Assembly (NCBI RefSeq): GCF_025766255.1 | Contig: NW_026516790.1 | Span: 56,511-120,510, forward strand | Direction of reading: 5' to 3' | Source: Zychaea mexicana | Lineage: Eukaryota > Mucoromycota > Mucoromycetes > Mucorales > Lichtheimiaceae | Length of the DNA stretch: 64,000 nucleotides | Part shown: one piece after another, positions 2,926 to 40,090 of the stretch | Layout: every line of letters begins with the position of its first letter | How positions within the stretch are numbered: the first letter of the stretch is position 1 | Position numbers and translations under genes: made by a program | The notes under the pieces: model-generated | Databases searched by the model: none | The model's input: only the letters and a program-made list of their open reading frames with translations | What the model was told of the DNA's origin: nothing

Positions 2926-3645
2926 CCTATATTGTACAAGATCTAATGATTATAGATGAAGAAAATAATAATGAGAATATAATTAATAATAATGTAGAGG
3001 TAGATTTTCCTGAATATCAAACTATAAATAGAAAAAAAAGAAAAAAAGGTAAAAGTGAAGTGAAAGAGATTTCAATGAACAACAAATATTAAAAGATCAT
3101 TTTCAAATTAAAAACATTAAGTATTAAAATAAAGATTAAATAGAGGTTTCATTTAAATATGTTTAATATATAAAATGTAGCAGGTTTCTCAGAAATGTAA
3201 TAGGTTTCATAGAAATACTATTAAATCTCTGTATAAGAATTAATCCTCTGAAACTTTTTTCCAGGGGATTAAACTTGAACAATTAAATATACCACATTTA
3301 ATTGTTTCATATTTATCAATGACTTAATAATAATTTTTTATAAATATATATAATATTCAGATTTTGAATTTTTTTAGAGGATGAATATCAATTTTATATA
3401 TAAAACCTATTTACATTTGTTACCATGGAGGAACAATTCTATTTATTTATTGTAGATATAAATCAAAGCAGTTGATAGTTTATAAGGTATAAGTTGTAAA
3501 AAAAACTTGCACTGTAACTCTTTGTAGTTCTTTCTCTCAGAGAAAGGTTCATGAATTTCAATAAAAAAATAACATTTTTTGTCTTTGAAAAATTCAAAAT
3601 AACTTTATACTTATATTAATTATATATAATTATCAGTACTATAAT
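2926..3645 (+). pseudogene. 3' remnant of AT-rich DDE-chromodomain element (G0)
   Basis: The coding remnant at about 2940-3105 matches the C-terminal tail of the G1 protein at 9990-10336: an Asp/Asn-rich stretch, then the basic run NRKKRKKGKSE. The chromodomain is missing. The frame jumps from the basic run straight to the last helix (ISMNNKY..), and a shared GAAAGA at the junction suggests a microhomology-mediated deletion. The 5' part was lost where the Tc1-like element now sits. After about 3105 the sequence is non-coding and AT-rich. It includes a perfect 11-bp stem (AACAATTAAAT at 3278-3288 with ATTTAATTGTT at 3296-3306), possibly near the element end. Confidence 0.65.
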
Positions 3646-4645
3646 GGGCCTCGTCAAGGTTGGTTGGACCTAGGATATCACAGGTTTCACAAAAAAAATA
3701 AATAATTTTAATTGGGTAGCAGAATTTTAAGCCCCCAGCAAAATTCAGCAAAATAGCTAGACCGTCTTTAATGCAGATACGTTTCTGAAGATACCTTCTT
3801 TAGTAGGTTTCTCGGCCCTACGAATATACCGGTTAATGCATTATGGATCAATTATTACACCAGTTAATGCAAAGAAGAGCACAAAACGTCAATGAACAAT
3901 ACACATCAGAATGAAATAAAAGGCATAACACTAGTATATAAGGACATATTGATTAAGGTTACTATAAACCTTTCTTTTTTTCTGCTATATCATATAAAAA
4001 AGTAAAAGAAAAACTCAAAAAATCTTGTTTGACGTTAATTTGTCTCATAGTGCAGCAAAAAATAAAAAAACTTTTGAGGCAGCAGTAAACAAACAACAAC
4101 CTGGGGCTTTTTTTCTACAAACAACATTTCGATTATGCTAATATAAACATTGAATAGAAGATTTTGTATCAGTTAAATAATTTTTGATTTGGAGTTGGAC
4201 AATGATCTTTGTTCGTGTTTAAAATATAATACGTAAATGCCGTTTCTTATACATTCAAGTTCTTCGTCTTTTTACATCAGCTTTGGAAAAAACTTCTCTG
4301 TTCCCAATTTCACTAAAATATATACTAACCAATTGCTTCCTGTTCCTGGCTTCTACCGTAGTCTGACCAATCAATCGCGTATGGCCTTTTCCTTTCTTAT
4401 TAATAAGTGTATGTATATAAGTATATTCCCAGGGTAAACATCTTTTTCCTTTCAAACTAACCACTCATTTTTACTCATTTATGCGCATTTATGACTCTCA
4501 ACCTAATGGACCACTCGTCTTTTCTCCTTCATATACATATACGGCGTGCAATTGAGCCCCGTTTGCACCTAGTTTCACTCGAAGTAGCATATATAATATG
4601 ACCAGGTAAGTGACGGAAGGTAAGTACCAAAAATATCAATCAATT

Positions 4646-6168
4646 ATGGCACAACATCGATTCAGTGTCCCCATTCCAAACAACCCTGAAAATGGTCCCC
4701 AAACCAGTGCCCAAACAAGTTCACAGCAGGACAGCCTCGAGGACAACAGTGTACTGACAAATAGCCCATTGTATGGAGTGATGCATGGTGCTGCATCTTT
4801 TTATCCATCATTCCCATATTCACAAGTGCCTCATTACCCTCCTTCTCCAATGACACAGACACAAACAGGAGGAGTGCCTTTGCTGCCAGCACCGCCTGCG
4901 CAGGCTGAAGAAGCATCGATACCACCTGGTGACCAGCAAATCGCACAGTCTTCAGGATCACAATCGGCAACGCATGTACCAGATTCTATGATGGCTGGCC
5001 ATTCAACAACTTCATCAGTACCTGCTACGGCAGCTACTACACCAGCAGTAGCCTCTTCAAGCGCAGCAGCAACAGTACCTTCTGCAACCGCACCAACTAC
5101 AACTGCGTCAGGTATAGGACATTTCTTTTTGTTTAGTTAATAATTGTTGTCGTCAATACACTTGTTTATCGTTTGAATATGTGTTTTAGGACGAGCCAAT
5201 TGGACGAGTGAAGATATAAAGAAACTTGCCAAGGCAGTAGCAGAAAGGAAGCAGCGGTTTTTTGCAAACAAGTCGTCGACCACTGCAACTATCAGCTGGA
5301 TCATATTTGCCGCATCTTACACACAACAATAAGTACTCACCAAGGTAGATTGGTTGCGAGACAAATGGGAGAAGGACACGAGAGAAAAAAATCTCCAGTC
5401 CAGTCAAGGTGTTCCTAGCGGTCTACACTCACATATAACATGGGAAGGTAAGCTCAGATATAGTGATATTATATCTACAAGGACGCCTATTGCATTGTAT
5501 ATACTAAACTGTATATAAAAAAAGCCTACGTTAAATTTAAGTGGCCTCTATGGGAGGATTGCGAGAATATATTCGGCGACAGCATTGGTGCCAACTCTCA
5601 AATCCAAATGGATAGCTTGAGTGGGCTAGTGGATGAGAGCGATAATCAATCACAGCGAGGCGATGACGCTATTGGTGAAGAAGTTTAAGAAGCTTCGGGA
5701 CCTAGACTTCACGTGGATGATGAAACGTAAGCTTTTGAAATGCTCATTCCGATGGGCTATACGATATACAGATGTTTGTTATTGACCGAATATTTCCTTT
5801 GTTTCTTTCTTTTTTTTAGCATGGATTTTACTGAGAGTTTCATGTCTGAACGTTCGCGTCTTCACGTTGAAATACACAAGACTCGTCAAAAACAGTTGGA
5901 CCTTGCAATCGAAAAAATGCGAGCCCAGACTCGACGCGAAGAAATGGCACATGAAGAATGCATGCAACGGCTGCACCATGAACACGACGCGCGATATATA
6001 AAACGTTTGCGACTGTCAATTGGATTAGAAGAGTTGAAACAAAAAAATGGGGGAGAGTACATATGGAGAGAAGAAAGAGAGGAGAGACGGGAGAGTACAG
6101 AAGAAGCGAGTAGTGTGGCAAGTAGTGTTGGAGGTGGAAGAGAGAGAGTAGGTTTGTTTTGTTTTTGA
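4646..6168 (+). CDS. Harbinger Myb/SANT-like accessory protein (spliced)
   Basis: Harbinger elements need a second, Myb-like protein that binds the element and helps bring transposase to the nucleus. The chosen start is ATG 4646 (MAQHRFSVP). Exon 1 encodes a Pro/Ser/Thr/Gln/Ala-rich region to about 5112. After a short intron ending TTTTAG at 5190, exon 2 carries the trihelix/SANT-like start RANWTSEDIKKLAKAVAERK. A further exon (about 5342-5446) has VDWLRDKWEKD. The last exon (about 5820-6168) is a charged helix rich in Arg/Glu (LHVEIHKTRQKQLDLAIEKM) ending in Ser/Gly-rich sequence. A TAA at 5331 and the exact junctions are unresolved, so the gene may be damaged. It converges with the transposase, with the stops about 40 bp apart. 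Confidence 0.72.
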
Positions 6169-6206
6169 TTTTAGTTTTAAAATATTACAATAAAAAACAA
6201 AAAGGC

Positions 6207-7718
6207 CTATCGAGCTGTGATTACAAGTGCTATCTTCAAGTACACTCGCATCATTTCGCCTGGGGTGATTTGACCTCTGTTACGTCTATTTGTGTCAACG
6301 AACTCGTTACCTTCATCATCATCACCCCAAAAGTCATCATCACCGGTCCGACGAAGCTCTCTTACGTTGCTCATGTCTGCGTCTGGATTGCGGCGCCATT
6401 GGAGGTCGCCAATGACGCTCAAGTAAGAGCCGTCATCTTTCACGTTTTGCACAAAATTGTGCAGCAGACAACAAACAGCAATCCAGTTCATGCATTGCTT
6501 ATAATCACGTTTGCTTCTGATCATGATCGGTAGACATTTTAAGCTTTGCCATCTGTTCTTCAAAAACCCGATCGTACGTTCAACCTCCACTATACACAAA
6601 GTAGATCAAAAGAAAATGGCTCAACACACAAGAATACGTGGACAAATTACAAATTCGTAATAATACAACGTACCTCATACAGACGACAACTTTCGATTGA
6701 ACTGAAGATTTTCCGGGATCTGTCGTGCCTCCCCTTTATATGGTGTGACAAGACGCGGTGACAGAGGGTAAGCTGCATCGCCAAGAATGTATTCAGATTC
6801 ATCAAAGAATAAATCTAAATTCTTTCCTATCATACTTTTACGGAAAGCGCGCGAGTCGTGTACCTTCCCTGTTTCACTAGCAGAGAAGTAACGGATCCGA
6901 TCGTTGATATCACAAACGATCTGCAGATTAAGTGCATATCTTTTCTTTCTCGTAAAGAATTGTTCGCCTTGCCAACTTGGCTTGTATTGCAACACATCAT
7001 CAGTGCCGTCAACAATACCAATGCATTCTTTGAATGCGAGGTCTTTGATATCATGAAGATCAGTCTTCAGTTGGCTGCGCTCGTCCTCATTGGGCCAGAA
7101 TACGAATTCCTTGATATGCTTCAGTAATGCATGAATTACCCTGTCCGTGAAGAGAGCAACTGTGCCCTTGCCGAAACCATATCTTGAAGCCACATCATCA
7201 AGATCGCGCGACAAGTGACTGAATCGGTATAATGCGATTCCCAACTGAATTCGAACAGGTGTCTGTCGCATTTTCCTTTCGTTTTTGTTGAAGACGTGGT
7301 CATCCTTGATGAGATCGTACAGTGCCTCAAACGTGTTCCTGGTCATTCGAAATTTGCGTCGAAATGCGGCGTTGTCGCTCGTTGTAAACAAAAGTTCACG
7401 TAGGTCGACGGCTTTAGGTTTCCTTTTTCTTGATACCAAGTAATGGCTTGACAAGACCTTCTTGACAAATTCTTAGTCAAATTCCGTCAACTCGAGTTCT
7501 TCATCAACGAAGTCACCCAACAAGTCTTCGTCATTGAGAAACGACATGTCAACTTCTTCATGAATGGGCATTGCTTCGTCCGAGATCAAACCCCATTTTC
7601 GGTCGAGATCGTTTAAGAACTTATGCTGACCACACAGCATTTTGTCGGAGACCTTGCTAATATTGACGAAGTGCCGTAAGATACGAGCTTTCTTGGTGAG
7701 GCGAATCTTCTTAGGCAT
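6207..7718 (-). pseudogene. PIF/Harbinger transposase (DDE_Tnp_4)
   Basis: Starts at ATG 7718 (MPKKIRLTKKARILRHF). The first 80 residues end in an acidic patch. An in-frame TAA at 7473-7475 interrupts the reading, which continues in the same frame through 6682. Visible motifs: an HTH-like region (DDVASRYGFGKGTVALF), D1 in CIGIVDGTDDVLQY, then GKVHDSRAF, D2 in ILGDAAYPLSPRLVTPY, and the catalytic Glu in VERTIGFLKNRW, followed by CLLHNF. A roughly 96-bp intron (GTATGAG..AG, about 6585-6680) joins LSS to VERTIGF in phase 0. It ends with an acidic tail (GDDDFWGDDDEGNEF). Apart from the single stop the protein looks complete, so it is either a recent pseudogene or carries one sequencing or assembly error. 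Confidence 0.88.
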
Positions 7719-8535
7719 AGTGGATAAGTGTGATAAACGTGGGTTGTGGATAGATAATAGAGGTTAAATAAAAGACGATATGAAATACAGTGAGAGTCAA
7801 ATATGAGATGATTTTTATTGAATGAATTCACAACCCTTTATATACTGTTGAAGATGGTGTCTAGACTTCCATTTGGATGAACTGACGAATGGATCGTAGA
7901 CATGCTGGATTTCGGATGTTTCAAAGATGAAGAAGGATGGGAGAGTTGAGTTTGTCGGCCATGATAATGATGGATGTTGTCTTCCGATTGTAAAGAGTCA
8001 TCTTTGTCTTGATCTATCAGTGTGTTCTTTGTTTGGTGAAGTCTAATCTTTGTCAAGGCTGGAATTAGTATCCGCTCTTTGACAGGTACACTTCGCTCAA
8101 CTCAGATAAGCTAGATTCACAGGAAGTGCTGACTAACTCGAGAATAGGACAATATGTATACAATGGTTGGTCCTGAGTTATTCTCGATTGTAATCCATGT
8201 TTGAGAGATTATCGATATGGTGCTAATTATGTAATATTTGATTCATCCGTGTGTGTGGTGTTCTCTCTACTACGCTCTAATGGTTATGAAGACGGCGGAG
8301 TAGGTTGAGTTGCCCGGATCAATGTCAAAGTAGTATGGTTTACCACTACAAGAAGCAAAGAAGGAGAAAACAAATTAAAGTGACAGAATTACTTATTTAG
8401 GCAACTTCACATATTGAACTGCTTAGAACTGGGTCGTCAAAGTAAATTTTTCCGGGACTATTTTTTATTAGTTTTTATTTTTTATCAGCGACACCTATAG
8501 ATTTCCAGGTCCAACCAACTTTGACGAGGCCCAAT

Positions 8536-10445
8536 GACCTAATTTTTATCTTATTAAATAATTTTACATACTTTTTTCTATAAAATTGAATTTTATTATA
8601 TTATATGAATTAGATATCAAAATATAAGATAAATAATAATTATATAGATATTTAATTTTGGTATTTAGCTAAGGTTATAAGTTTTTCCTGATTGCTTTGT
8701 AAATAAGTTAAAAGAACGGTTTTTATTATAAATTTTCAAAATGGTATTTGATGAATATAATAGCTCACTAAATAAAGAAGAAGTTTTAAAATATAAAACA
8801 TTATTACCGGAAGAGATAGATAAATTAATTATAAATGAATGGCGATTTATAAATGAAAATTGGAAGAAAAGACAAAATAATTATAAACATTGAACAGAAT
8901 TGAAATATATTAAAGAAATAGATGAAATTAAAAAAGAATTATTACAAAAGTTAGGATATACTTCTGTATTTTTCTTTTTAACTAAATTATATACACATAA
9001 GGATTATCCTTCACCATATTTTGAAATTGAAAAAGGGTTATATTTAATATATCATCTTATATCAGGTATTACATCTAAAGATATGAAACGAAATATACCA
9101 TATACATCATTCTATAAATTTTATAAAGAATTTTGGATAACAAATTATGATAGTTTGAATAAATATGTAGATATATGTCTAAAAAATATGTTTTCTAATA
9201 TTAAAATAAGAATTTAGTCTGCATTAATAAAAAACCCTAAAAATTTTAAAAATATAACATTACTATTAGATGGTCATGATAGTACTATTGAATATGATAA
9301 GCCTGACATTTCTGCACAAAAACCATGGTCATATAAATTAAAAATATCAGGTTTAAGAACACAAGTATTAACAGATATTAATAATTTTATAATTGCAGTT
9401 TCTGATAGTCAACTATGTAGAGTTAGTAGTGATGGTGGTATGTTCTTAAACATGAAATTATATACGAAAATAGATAAAAGAGATGTTTTAGCTATTGATG
9501 GTGGTTACACATTATTTATTAAATAGTTTGAAGACTTATGTAAAAAGAAACATATTTCATTAAGTGATAATAATTTCTTTTATCCTATTAAAAAGATCCT
9601 AATGAAGAATTGAATATACAAGAAAAACATTTTAATGATGTATTTGGAAGTTTTCAGTCAGCTATAGAAAACCAATTTTGTGAATTAGGAAATAAATTTA
9701 AACGATTTTCTAATAATAACTCTACATTAAAAACAGATGATTATAAATATATTAACTTACAAATAAAAGTAGCATTTTTACTTAAAAATATACAATTATT
9801 TATAGATACACTCAATATAATTATACAAGAACACCATAAACTATGGGCTGAAAAAAAACTTTGAATTTCCTACTGATAAAAAACTAATAGATATAGTTTT
9901 AAATAATGAGATAAATTAAATGGAAAAAATTAAAATAATGAGTGAATTACAAAAAGATTTATCAGATTTATCATTAGAAAGTGATAATATGATTATTGAT
10001 GATAATAATAATAATGAAGAGTTTAATAATCATATAATTGATAAAAATGAAGATATAGATTTCCCTGAATATAATAATATTAATAGAAAAAAAAGAAAAA
10101 AAAATAAAAGTGAAAGAAAAATTAATTTAAATTTAATTAGAGAAATTAACAAAAATTATTTTTTTTATAAAGTTGAAACAGTTATAGAACATAAATTAAG
10201 TAAAAATAATGAATATGAATTTCTTGTTAAGTGGAAAGATTATGATGAAACAGATAATTCCTGGGTAAATGAGAAAGATTTCAATGAAAAACAAATATTA
10301 AAGGCTTATTTTAAAACCAAAAACATTAAGTATTAAATTAATTATTTTTGTATATGTAGATTATTATTATAATGTTTCTAATAATTATATTTAAACTATT
10401 AAATGTAGTAGGTTTCATAATTTTGTTATTAAACATAAGGATAAG
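8536..10445 (+). mobile_element. AT-rich DDE-chromodomain element, copy G1
   Basis: Strongly AT-rich block starting right of the Harbinger insertion and ending near the GGATTAATTCTC sequence at about 10445, where base composition changes abruptly. It contains one long, decayed gene (8741-10336). I could not define inverted repeats or a target duplication, partly because the Harbinger element replaced the left boundary. Unlike copy G2 it has no recognisable second gene on the opposite strand. Confidence 0.6.
8741..10336 (+). pseudogene. DDE (PIF/Harbinger-like) transposase fused to a chromodomain, copy G1
   Basis: The start is ATG 8741 (MVFDEYNSS). The protein resembles the G2 product throughout. 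The DDE-like core shows D1 in LLLDGHDSTIEY (about 9270), a GGMFLNMKLY box, D2 in VLAIDGGYTLF (about 9500) and an acidic residue in AIENQFCELGNKFKRF (about 9670). The tail is acidic/Asn-rich, then the basic NRKKRKKNKSERK, then a C-terminal chromodomain (about 10165-10310: YKVETVIEHKL, EYEFLVKWKDYDETDNSWV). It is broken by in-frame stops at about 8892 (TGA), 9216 (TAG), 9524 (TAG) and 9917 (TAA), and by frameshifts near 9590 and 9860. At 8892 and 9524 the G2 paralogue has Arg and Gln. Codons are extremely A/T-biased compared with neighbours. Superfamily assignment rests on motifs only. Confidence 0.7.
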
Positions 10446-10457
10446 GATTAATTCTCC

Positions 10458-36039: not shown

Positions 36040-37295
36040 CCCCAAAAGTCCAAAAAAAATTTACAGCCTCTTCTCCATCTTTTAAGGAGTGGCCCCCTTC
36101 TTACTTTCATTAGGATTATCCTCATCAGGATACATGGAGTTCAACTTAGCCTTTACTACCTGCTTCTCTACTACATAAGTCTTCCAAATTCATTATGCAG
36201 TATCTACTGAGCGTAACAATGATGCTTTTATCAATAATAATACTCCATCTATTAAATATAGCGACACATCATTCACTCAATACTAGTGTTCCTCATCTTA
36301 TCCAGTATCTGCACATCCGATCCATATCCAATCCGATATCCATAGATTCGGATCAACCTTGTAGCTCTCAGATGTAGATACAGATAGGTATCATATCTGA
36401 TCCAATATCCAGTCATTCGATAGATAAACTTTGATTTTCGAATTAACCATCAACGTTTTTAGAATCAATGAAGTTTTGTATATGTAAATGAAGCTAACAA
36501 TAATTTTTGCTATGGCATAAAAAGATGAATTATGATTTAGAAAATATAGGACAATTTTGAATGAAAAGCATGCTGTGTAGTATCTAGTAGAGAATACTAA
36601 AGATAGGTGATCATCAATTTATTTCAATGGTTTGCTAGTCGTAGATACAGAGTAAAAGGAAAATATACAGCGTTTTGGGTATAGAAAAGGAACATTGCTG
36701 TCAGTCATATTCGCAAAAAGTGGAAGTAAAGAAAAGACATATAGAGTGTAGTGTGTCAATGCTGAGTCGTGGCCATTGTGGGTTGCTATAGTAAAGTAAG
36801 AGCAAAAAAATAAAATAGTCATAAACGAAGAATGTTGCTGTCAGGCATATTCCCAAAAGATCAGTGTTGGATATTCATGGGGCGAAAAAAAATAAGAAAT
36901 AATTTTCATGATCGAAAAATCACGGAAGTGCACAACACCGAACGAAAAACCAAATATCCAGTAGTTTAAAAGAGCTTTATAGTTGGATGTCAAGCTTTGG
37001 GGGTATGAGCTAGAAAAAACATCAGAGTGCATATACTAAATGTAGTAGATATGCACCAGGTAGCTCATGTGCATCTACGATTGTACTCTCTACCAGTGTA
37101 CTGATGCAGAGGGCATTCAACGAGTTGCTCTATGATCGTACAAACGTTACTCCTATGAAAACGGACAGCACCAGAGGCGGGGGGCTGTACCCCCACCCAC
37201 TTTTCTTTACTTTCTCATCTTGCTCTTTGGAGGATGTTTACTAATTGAAGTTTTTCATCTAAACTAAGGTCAATAAAATATTTAAGGTTCACAAA
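36040..37295. other. Intergenic region, no gene
   Basis: 36295-36415 is a cluster of ATCCGATCCATATCC-like words in both orientations (ATCCAATCCGATATCC, ATTCGGATC), possibly a subterminal array. TTGCTGTCAG(T/G)CATATTC occurs at about 36697 and 36837. 37165-37200 is a GC-rich palindrome. No protein-coding frame is supported. Confidence 0.45.
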
Positions 37296-37365
37296 AATTC
37301 CTCATGTTTACAAAATTATTATATTTTTAAAATTGAATATAAAAAAAATTGAATTTTAATTAAAT

Positions 37366-38934
37366 ATAAAAATATATTACAATAGATAACCAACAAATAG
37401 ATGAAAAGATTAATAATGAAGTTAACAAAATTATTGTTAATAAGTGGGAATTTTTGGAATATAACTGGCCAATTGTTAATTATAATTACAAGCATCGTAC
37501 AGAATTAAAACATATTAAAGGTATTGATGATATTAGAAATATTTTAGTAGATAAACTTAGTCATATAGCTGTTTTTTTCTTTTTGGTTGTTTTATATACT
37601 AGCTGTGAATATCCTGGCCCTTATTTTGAAGTTGAAAAAGGTTTATTTTTATTATATCATTTAGTTTCTAGTGTTTCTGGTATTGAAATTCATAAGTTTA
37701 TCCCACAAACATCATTTCACAAATACTATAAAAGGTTTTGGATAGATGAAGATAACTATAAAAGGCTAAATAAAATTATTAATGATTCTATAGAGAATAT
37801 GTTTTCTTCTTTAACCTTAAGAATTTTATCTTCTTATAAATATAATCCACCACTTTTTAAACATATAACTTTTATAATAGATGGTCATGATTCAAGAATT
37901 AACTATGTTAATACTGATATAAAACATGAAAGATTATGGTCATATAAATTTAAAAAAAATAAAGTTCGTACACAAATTGTTAGCGATATTAACGATATGA
38001 TTTTATATGCTTCCAAAAGCGATTATTGTTCCGATAGTTCTGACGGAAGTATGTTTTTGAACATGAAATTATATAAAAAAATATCTAAACAAGATGTATT
38101 GGCAACAGATGGTGGTTATACTTTATTTATTAATCAGCTTATAGAACTTGGTGCGGAAAAAGGATATGATTTATCTTTAAATAATTTTGTTTATCCTATA
38201 CGCAAAGAAAAGAATGTAGATTTAACAGCAGAAGAAAGGCATTATAATGATGTTTTTGGTAGCTTCCGTTCAAAAATAGAAGACCAATTTGCTGCAATAG
38301 GTAATAAATTTTATAGATTTAATAATAATAAATCTATTGTTAAGATGGACAACATAAAGTTTTATAATCTTCAATTTCGTGTTGCTTGTTTATTAAAAAA
38401 TATAAAAATATTTAGTGAAAAGTTTAATATTAATACACAAGCACATCATAAATTGTGGGAATCAGATAATTTTGAATTTCCATACAAAGCTAAATTAATA
38501 GATATAGTTATTAGCAATTCATCTGAGGCAAAAAATAAATTAGATGAAATGGTTAAATTACAGGAACAGTTTTTAAATAATTTAAGTATAGATAATACTG
38601 ATATGATTATTGATAATGAATACAGCGATGAAAATGATAATGATAAAGATGTTTCCAGCGAAGAAGATGTACCTAAATTCAATGAGAAAAAAGAAAAAGA
38701 AAAGGTAAAGGCAAAGGAACATTAATGGATATAAATAAAATTAGAAATAATTCAACTTCTAATATTTCTTATGAAATAGAATCCATAATAAATCATAAAT
38801 TTGCAAATGACTCCTATATATTCCTAATTAAATGGAAAGGTTATAGTGAATCCCAAAATAGCTAGATATCAATGAAAGATTTTAATGAAACCGATATGTT
38901 AAATAACTATATGAAAGTTAATAAATTAACTTAG
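37366..38934 (+). pseudogene. DDE (PIF/Harbinger-like) transposase fused to a chromodomain, copy G2
   Basis: The longest intact copy. The frame is open from 37366 without an ATG in the first 30 codons; copy G1 suggests the true start has been lost upstream. The core shows FIIDGHDSRINY (D1, about 37880), DGSMFLNMKLYKK (about 38045), VLATDGGYTLFINQL (D2, about 38100), HYNDVFGSFRSKIEDQFAAI (acidic residue, about 38260). The tail is acidic, then Lys/Glu-rich. At 38723-38725 it stops in TAATG, where the chromodomain frame begins (ATG 38725): ISYEIESIINHKF, SYIFLIKWKGYSESQNS. One base lost or gained in the A-rich run at about 38685-38702 explains the split, because G1 has both parts in one frame. 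A second lesion turns the conserved chromodomain Trp into TAG (38863-38865). Confidence 0.72.
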
Positions 38935-39044
38935 ATAACTCGATACTCTACCCTTCCTAATAAAATATCATAACTATGTATAGTTATTTTATTTTATGTA
39001 AGATATATTATTTGAGTGTGTATAGTAGATAACGTCGGTTCCTA

Positions 39045-39577
39045 TTATTGTAATAATCCTTTAAGTACATTTGCTAGGTTAAAACTTCCACTGTTGCATA
39101 TATATATTTTTCTAGATTTTCTTTTTTTTATTCTTTTGTTATTAGTTTTATGTATAAAATCACCATCATTAACAATTATGCATGGTAAATTAGGATTTTC
39201 TATTTTTTTTGTAGATTTTTTATTTTTTTTCTTTGGAACATAAAGTTTACTATGTATAGTACAAAGGTAATCAGGTTTAGGTTTATCTCCATTAAGATTA
39301 GTATTAATTTTTCTGTGACACATATGGCCATTTTTCTTACCTCTTTTATGTATGTAAGTGCACACATTATCGCTTGTATTAACATACCAAAAATAATTAT
39401 CTTTAACTTTATTAATTTCTTCATTAATTTTTTTTTCATAATCATCTTCTTACTTTCAATATCTTTAACTAACATTTCATCTTCAACATAATTATGCATA
39501 ACTTGCTCCATTAAATCTTTAATAGAACAAATCATACTATTCTTATTAATAAGAAGCTCAGTATTTAATATAACCAT
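39045..39577 (-). pseudogene. Small zinc-binding protein gene, second gene of element G2
   Basis: ATG 39577. The first 55 residues (MVILNTELLINKNSMICSIK..) end in an A-rich run at about 39428-39436, where one base shifts the frame. The shifted frame continues INEEINKVKDNYFWYVNTSD and then a compact Cys/His cluster: CTYIHKRGKKNGHMCHRK, then YLCTIHSK (about 39370-39240). A basic tail KKKNKKSTKK follows. The C..H..GK..GH.C..C..H spacing resembles a short zinc-binding module that I recall from large DNA virus and some fungal proteins; this is a motif resemblance only. The upstream region is shared with the orphan gene at 15352-16203. Confidence 0.5.
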
Positions 39578-39660
39578 TTAAATTTTTTATGCCAAGTAAT
39601 ATTGGAGGTATTTATTTTTATATTAAAAAAAATTCAGTTTTTGTTTTAAATAAAATTTAA

Positions 39661-40090
39661 CAGTATGCACGATTTCAAACTCCGAGAATAAAAAAAATTG
39701 TCAGTTAAGAAAAAATTTAAAGAAAATTTATTAACATCGTGTTAATGTTTATTCCTCTTTTATGAGCGCCCCTATATCCTAGGTTTACAGGAATCGAATT
39801 TATGCATTATGATGCAGCACACCTACTTGTTTCTCTAACAACAATAAAGACCCATATACCTAAATACTCTATATATGCGTTTTCTCTATTCCACTCCTTG
39901 TGTTGTGTAGCTTGTACTAGAGCAATGCATCAATGTGTTTGATGCAGAAACATACATCGTTCGTTTTATCATGTGTAATAAGAGGAAAAGATAAAGAAAT
40001 GCAGGAATAATTTAGAAGAAAGGACACGTGCACTCTTACAAAAGAAAAGAAAAGAGAGAGCGATCGTCTTAATCATTGTTCTTTTTTTTA
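39661..40090. other. Spacer between G2 and Plavaka D
   Basis: AT-rich to about 39740, then mixed sequence. No gene, tRNA or CACT-type terminus could be supported. The left end of Plavaka D must lie here. Confidence 0.4.

What the first reader, a model, noticed from the sequence alone, without database searches (positions are those of the whole stretch)
8741..10336. A DDE transposase fused to a C-terminal chromodomain
Copy G1 shows both parts in one reading direction: a PIF/Harbinger-like DDE core (LLLDGHDS, VLAIDGGYTLF, AIENQFCELGNKF), an acidic/basic linker, then a clear chromodomain (EFLVKWKDYDETDNSWV). G2 shows the same order, split by a single-base slip. Chromodomains are well known in Ty3/Gypsy chromoviruses, where they steer integration toward heterochromatin. 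A cut-and-paste transposase carrying one suggests chromatin-targeted DNA transposition.
Basis: partly seen in the sequence, partly recalled or inferred. Interest (0 to 1): 0.75.

Follow-up and report, generated by a model that had tools for sequence, protein, structure and literature searches.

The report
Chromodomain-tailed DNA transposase in lower fungi
The window holds two decayed copies of a fungal cut-and-paste jumping gene whose transposase carries, as part of the same protein, a chromatin-reading chromodomain; this suggests, but does not yet show, that the element reads histone marks when it moves.

Summary
The window copy (G1) is a pseudogene, but intact single-ORF relatives in the same genome carry DDE_Tnp_4 and Chromo together, both over Pfam cut-offs. 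The chromodomain lies inside the element, between short terminal inverted repeats. G1 is a whole element (3265-3645 + 8536-10456) split by a 4.9-kb ordinary PHIS transposon in its 5' leader. Many members carry a second, convergent gene with a Cys/His motif. AlphaFold gives an RNase-H transposase core, a disordered linker and an HP1-like chromodomain. Cage aromatics are kept in 74 of 81 domains; pN/pS is 0.51 for the chromodomain against 0.87 for the linker. On a tree of 123 transposases 75 have the chromodomain, with 10 changes, most simply losses. It is not PIF/Harbinger proper: target duplications are often 4 bp (identical in 10 of 18 copies), and no Myb/SANT partner was found. Chromatin-directed insertion is the best reading but is not shown: copies lie near retroelements no more often than chromodomain-less PHIS elements do. 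I found no description in the papers held.

The parts
3265..3645 (+). 5' terminal part of element G1 (begins GGGATTAAAC), separated from the rest by a nested transposon; the last 3 bases (AAT) are the target copy of the nested insertion
   Evidence: blastn of full-length copy L012 and reading of the letters
3646..8532 (-). nested ordinary PHIS transposon: inverted ends GGGCCTCGTCAA, 3-bp duplication AAT; DDE_Tnp_4 ORFs 6675-7472 and 6207-6605 (-), further ORFs 4610-5137 and 5731-6165 (+); no chromodomain found in the ORFs scanned
8536..10456 (+). rest of element G1, ending GGATTAATTCTC
8741..9523 (+). start codon, N-terminal helical part and first half of the DDE core (LLLDGHDS, LAIDGGY), with in-frame stops
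9601..9864 (+). second half of the DDE core in another frame (AIENQFCELGNKF)
9920..10165 (+). acidic then basic linker, predicted disordered in the family model
10166..10315 (+). chromodomain, Pfam Chromo 41.2 bits
2944..3248 (+). relic of an older member of the same family (3' part)
37230..39757 (+). G2: copy of another subfamily (as L063); 4-bp flanks TTTG / TTTT
37370..38725 (+). G2 transposase ORF, 451 aa, up to the frame slip
38686..38931 (+). G2 linker end and chromodomain in the next frame, one in-frame stop
39045..39577 (-). G2 relic of the second, convergent gene (ORF2) with Cys/His motif, in two frames
   Evidence: family

Best explanation
G1 and G2 are decayed copies of a large family of DDE cut-and-paste transposons whose transposase ends, after a disordered linker, in an HP1-type chromodomain. 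Shown here: one protein, inside terminal repeats; short target duplications; DDE core and chromodomain under purifying selection; cage residues kept. Inferred: the N-terminal helical part binds the terminal repeats, the RNase-H core cuts and joins, and the chromodomain docks the protein-DNA complex on nucleosomes methylated at H3K9 (or H3K27), so that the element preferentially leaves from or lands in heterochromatin. The convergent ORF2 product, in members that have one, may be an accessory DNA-binding factor in place of the Myb/SANT partner of PIF/Harbinger.
Against: No binding or transposition data. Copies are near integrase markers (11 of 91 within 10 kb; 4.4% expected for uniform positions) and seldom near kinase genes (1 of 91; 4.3% expected), but PHIS elements without a chromodomain behave alike (6 of 61; 2 of 61). 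48 of 123 tree rows lack a chromodomain, so it seems dispensable, though some of these may be truncated gene models. Synonymous differences are high (pS mostly 0.3-0.7), the pairs overlap and several copies carry stops. 8 of 18 copies lack identical 4-bp flanks, G1 among them. ORF2's model is poor (pLDDT 56).
Confidence: 0.55

Rival explanations
1. The chromodomain acts on the donor side or against silencing: it keeps transposase on, or gives it access to, heterochromatic copies, without choosing target sites.
For: Cage conserved and domain constrained, yet positions show no chromodomain-specific bias.
Against: No direct evidence; the positional test is weak because selection after insertion shapes both families.
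Confidence: 0.25
2. The chromodomain has another role: protein-protein or nucleic-acid contact, or a structural end-piece; methyl-lysine reading is incidental.
For: 7 of 81 domains lack one or more cage aromatics, gaps included; many family members do without the domain.
Against: Nearest relatives in sequence and fold are methyl-lysine readers; cage positions are almost fixed.
Confidence: 0.18
3. The fusion is an artefact: the chromodomain belongs to a neighbouring retroelement or gene and was merged by decay or misassembly.
For: G1 itself is broken, and the genome has many other chromodomains in long retroelement-like frames.
Against: Single ORFs without stops in three subfamilies, relatives in other species and sources, element termini outside the chromodomain.
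Confidence: 0.01

Closest known systems
PIF/Harbinger and the wider PHIS superfamily (Han et al. 2015, PMC4482050; section 0 part 1 of 4 and 12 passages seen)
   Same: DDE_Tnp_4 catalytic domain over the whole profile; short terminal inverted repeats; in many members a second, tail-to-tail gene
   Different: C-terminal chromodomain; target duplications often 4 bp (3 bp in C/D) of mixed sequence instead of TWA, ANT, CWG, TNA or AT; second gene without Myb/SANT; some members have one gene only (F, 1.84 kb)
Ty3/Gypsy chromoviruses
   Same: C-terminal chromodomain behind an RNase-H-fold recombinase (recalled; also PMC10799480 passages)
   Different: the recombinase is DDE_Tnp_4, not the rve integrase; no reverse transcriptase seen in the elements examined
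Maverick/Polinton elements with chromodomain (named in PMC10799480; passages seen)
   Same: DNA elements with a chromodomain
   Different: giant elements with a retroviral-type integrase and many genes (recalled); here a 1.8-2.5 kb element with one or two genes
HP1/Swi6/Chp1/CDYL chromodomains
   Same: fold and the three cage positions
   Different: here part of a transposase

Membership tests
PHIS superfamily | DDE transposase of the PIF/Harbinger-ISL2EU-Spy type over the whole catalytic region (E under 1e-4) | tested here: met
   Pfam DDE_Tnp_4, E 2.9e-10, profile 2-158 of 158 in L063. A BLASTP of L047 against the nested PHIS DDE gives only E 5e-4 over 96 columns, short of that limit
PIF/Harbinger group | 3-bp TWA target duplication | tested here: not met
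   Identical 4-bp flanks in 10 of 18 copies (A, A2, B, G, window); C/D 3-bp GAA, AAG, ATA, TGG, CTT
PIF/Harbinger group | second ORF with Myb/SANT domain | tested here: not met
   ORF2 of L063 reaches no Pfam cut-off; L053 is taken up by the transposase. ORF2 of other copies was not scanned
Pangu, NuwaI, NuwaII, ISL2EU, Spy | ANT, CWG, C|TNA|G, AT or no target duplication | tested here: not met
   flanks against the definitions; no consistent motif of these kinds
Cut-and-paste transposon | terminal inverted repeats and target duplication | tested here: met
   Short imperfect repeats, e.g. GGAATC.../GGGAAC..., GAGGATG.../GAGGAAT...
Cut-and-paste transposon | excision and reinsertion | not testable with these tools
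   needs an assay
Ty3/Gypsy chromovirus | reverse transcriptase and LTRs around the chromodomain ORF | tested here: not met
   ORF lists of six delimited elements of A2, B, C, F and G, 1.8-2.5 kb, show the transposase, ORF2 in G, and otherwise only short frames; A and D were not listed there and E was not delimited
Methyl-lysine-reading chromodomain | three-residue aromatic cage | tested here: met
   74 of 81 domains
Methyl-lysine-reading chromodomain | binding to methylated histone tail | not testable with these tools
   needs peptide binding

The most novel reading that the evidence does not exclude
Probability: 0.45. Interest if true: 0.78.

Novelty: new variant of a known kind. Interest (0 to 1): 0.6.

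Why it matters
Chromodomain targeting is known from LTR retrotransposons (recalled; Gao et al. 2008 was seen only as a title in the reference lists), where it is tied to a copy-and-paste cycle. A small DNA transposon with the same reader, in many subfamilies and with likely losses, would let one ask whether reading heterochromatin steers insertion, helps excision from silenced copies, or both. It would also be a natural counterpart to engineered transposase-reader fusions (recalled).

Tried and rejected
Replaced by distances between family markers: 91 element positions, 61 of 64 PHIS rows (3 second pieces dropped), 125 of 125 integrase rows, 110 kinase positions from the listed rows of a list that was cut (second exons dropped). 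Result: no difference between chromodomain and chromodomain-less elements.

A SUMO-interaction-like tail on chromodomain-less relatives (for example KKPIVVVENLDR): 20 of 48 against a shuffle mean of 14.8, maximum 23; not supported.

ORF2 fold: model too poor (pLDDT 56), not searched further. The first terminal-repeat scan failed because the 5' ends lay further upstream; solved. NCBIfam gave nothing for three proteins. Foldseek alone gave E no lower than 0.002 and only chromodomains among the 50 rows shown; the transposase core was seen. Subfamily E ends were not found; in F, L053 has AAT(G) on both sides and L055 a mismatch; C copies L034, L037 and L059 lacked a shared 5' end. The origin of the chromodomain was not resolved: the eight retroelement-like chromodomain loci are 40% identical to that of L047 over 40 residues. 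A second count on 50 chromodomain hits (26 with ORF2) is not used, because I picked those hits by hand.

Full report
What is there. The window is contig 32 (56511-120510) of a 50.3-Mb genome in 305 contigs. Pfam gives Chromo at 41.2 bits for 9920-10333 and only 16.7 bits of DDE_Tnp_4 for the broken piece 9218-9523.

Other copies. A DNA search of the own genome gave 41 match rows with 40 of 354 candidates scored; a protein search with the 526-aa ORF of L020 gave 85 match rows with 82 of 779 candidates scored, so copy numbers are lower bounds. 58 of the 85 rows reach residue 506 or beyond, inside the chromodomain; some copies appear as two rows. L047, L053 and L063 are ORFs without a stop of 550, 540 and 521 aa (stop to stop) with both domains over Pfam cut-off; L020 also passes both, with a chromodomain cut by a stop.

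Element structure. Comparing copies showed that similarity goes on about 380 bases 5' of the window match. In the window that 5' part lies at 3265-3645: a 4,887-bp ordinary PHIS transposon (3646-8532) with inverted ends GGGCCTCGTCAA, a 3-bp AAT duplication and its own DDE_Tnp_4 ORFs sits in the 5' leader. Ends of eight groups (A, A2, B-G) were looked at. Of 18 copies with both ends visible in A, A2, B and G (16 loci and the two window copies), 10 have identical 4-bp flanks; 3 have one mismatch (L027, L064 and window G2) and 5 no clear match (L014, L016, L030, L067 and window G1). In C/D 5 of 5 assessable copies have identical 3-bp flanks. Element ends were set from termini shared between copies, but the exact last base was settled with the flanks in view, so a base more or less is possible. 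L014 sits in a minisatellite whose unit suggests a 4-5 bp duplication. The delimited elements listed are 1.84 to 2.5 kb.

Second gene. Subfamily G, to which window G2 belongs, has a convergent ORF of 178 aa (L063:3121-3654, -) with nine relatives, no Pfam family over cut-off, and a conserved motif with invariant Cys, Cys and His and a further Cys missing in one of ten. In the genome 23 of 81 transposase places have it 112-402 bp downstream of the match on the opposite strand, 3 on the same strand, and 2 have it upstream. The plan recalls Harbinger: one paper states two tail-to-tail genes for brown-algal Harbinger elements (PMC12477816, passages seen). Members such as L053 have the transposase alone.

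Distribution. Searches gave 128 proteins (120 listed) and 191 with a profile (120 listed). Named hosts in the lists include Circinella, Lichtheimia, Mucor, Thamnidium, Apophysomyces and Phascolomyces on one side, and Mortierella, Linnemannia, Entomortierella, Dissophora and Gamsiella on the other; Circinella minor is Mucoromycotina and Dissophora ornata Mortierellomycotina (the other placements are recalled). On both sides there are named proteins with Chromo and DDE_Tnp_4 (Circinella, Apophysomyces; Dissophora, Entomortierella). The window's own host was not identified. Of 121 proteins of 400 aa or more, 71 have the chromodomain by a local profile built from this family. On a tree of 123 rows from the DDE part (119 proteins of 400-600 aa and 4 of this genome; short search, SH-aLRT support only) the label changes 10 times, 9 of them forced by well-supported branches, and the chromodomain occurs on both sides of the midpoint root. 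An old gain with several losses is the simplest reading. By eye one Linnemannia protein ends in what looks like a worn chromodomain (P0087), which the profile does not find; some rows without it, such as P0009, look like truncated or frame-shifted models. The root is not inferred, so independent gains are not excluded.

Chromatin test. Element positions compared with 125 integrase rows: 11 of 91 within 10 kb and 24 of 91 within 25 kb, against 4.4% and 9.1% for uniform positions; PHIS elements without a chromodomain 6 of 61 and 14 of 61 (Fisher p 0.80 and 0.70). Near kinase genes: 1 of 91 and 2 of 61 within 10 kb (4.3% expected), 5 of 91 and 4 of 61 within 25 kb (10.2% expected). Both families lie in retroelement-rich regions; nothing is specific to the chromodomain. 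The PHIS set is mixed: six close relatives of the nested element and otherwise mostly distant ones (25-48% identity).

Literature. Searches of the held library (of, 20 of 107 papers were listed, 20 of 184) showed no title or abstract start that describes a DDE_Tnp_4/Harbinger-type transposase with a chromodomain. Seen: PHIS paper PMC4482050 (section 0 part 1 of 4 and passages; no word beginning 'chromo' in the text), PMC12730594 (section 14 and passages), PMC12477816, PMC10799480, PMC3441728, PMC7175516, PMC4112212 (passages). PMC10799480 names Mavericks and chromoviruses as carriers of chromodomains. A 2017 survey of fungal cut-and-paste transposons (10.1093/gbe/evx261, recalled) is not held, nor is Repbase, so prior mention there is possible. 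Databases already show the pair automatically: one JGI protein is named for both domains (P0124).

Verdict. A real, widespread and constrained fusion, best read as a chromatin-reading DNA transposon of a PHIS-related lineage that fits none of the named PHIS groups I could check; how the chromodomain is used is still inference.

Noticed in passing
window 3646-8532: A full ordinary PHIS transposon (inverted ends GGGCCTCGTCAA, duplication AAT, as in the ANT duplications of Pangu) is nested in the 5' leader of G1.
   Followed up: partly
window 39045-39577 (-); L063:3121-3654 (-): Conserved ORF2 family with a Cys/His motif, convergent with the chromodomain transposase; 150 match rows in the genome with 150 of 274 candidates scored, many away from any listed transposase.
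   Followed up: partly
L010 and L011 (contig 13, 252.7-261.1 kb): Two nearly identical copies in opposite orientation about 4.6 kb apart, with 1500 bases of 5' flank also 99.9% alike: a large inverted duplication.
   Followed up: no
L014 and L023: Copies inserted in a roughly 33-bp minisatellite; shared 5' flanks 98.8% alike.
   Followed up: no
L021, L024: By eye, the flank of L021 holds a Ty3/Gypsy-like reverse transcriptase/integrase ORF, and that of L024 a Pif1/Helitron-like helicase ORF: insertions into or beside other transposons.
   Followed up: no
P0049, P0050, P0122 and others: Chromodomain-less relatives end in a short hydrophobic tail after an acidic-basic stretch (PIVVVENLDR type); the loose motif was not above shuffles.
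   Followed up: partly
L020 and window G2: The same tryptophan codon of the chromodomain (NSW) is a stop in both copies.
   Followed up: no
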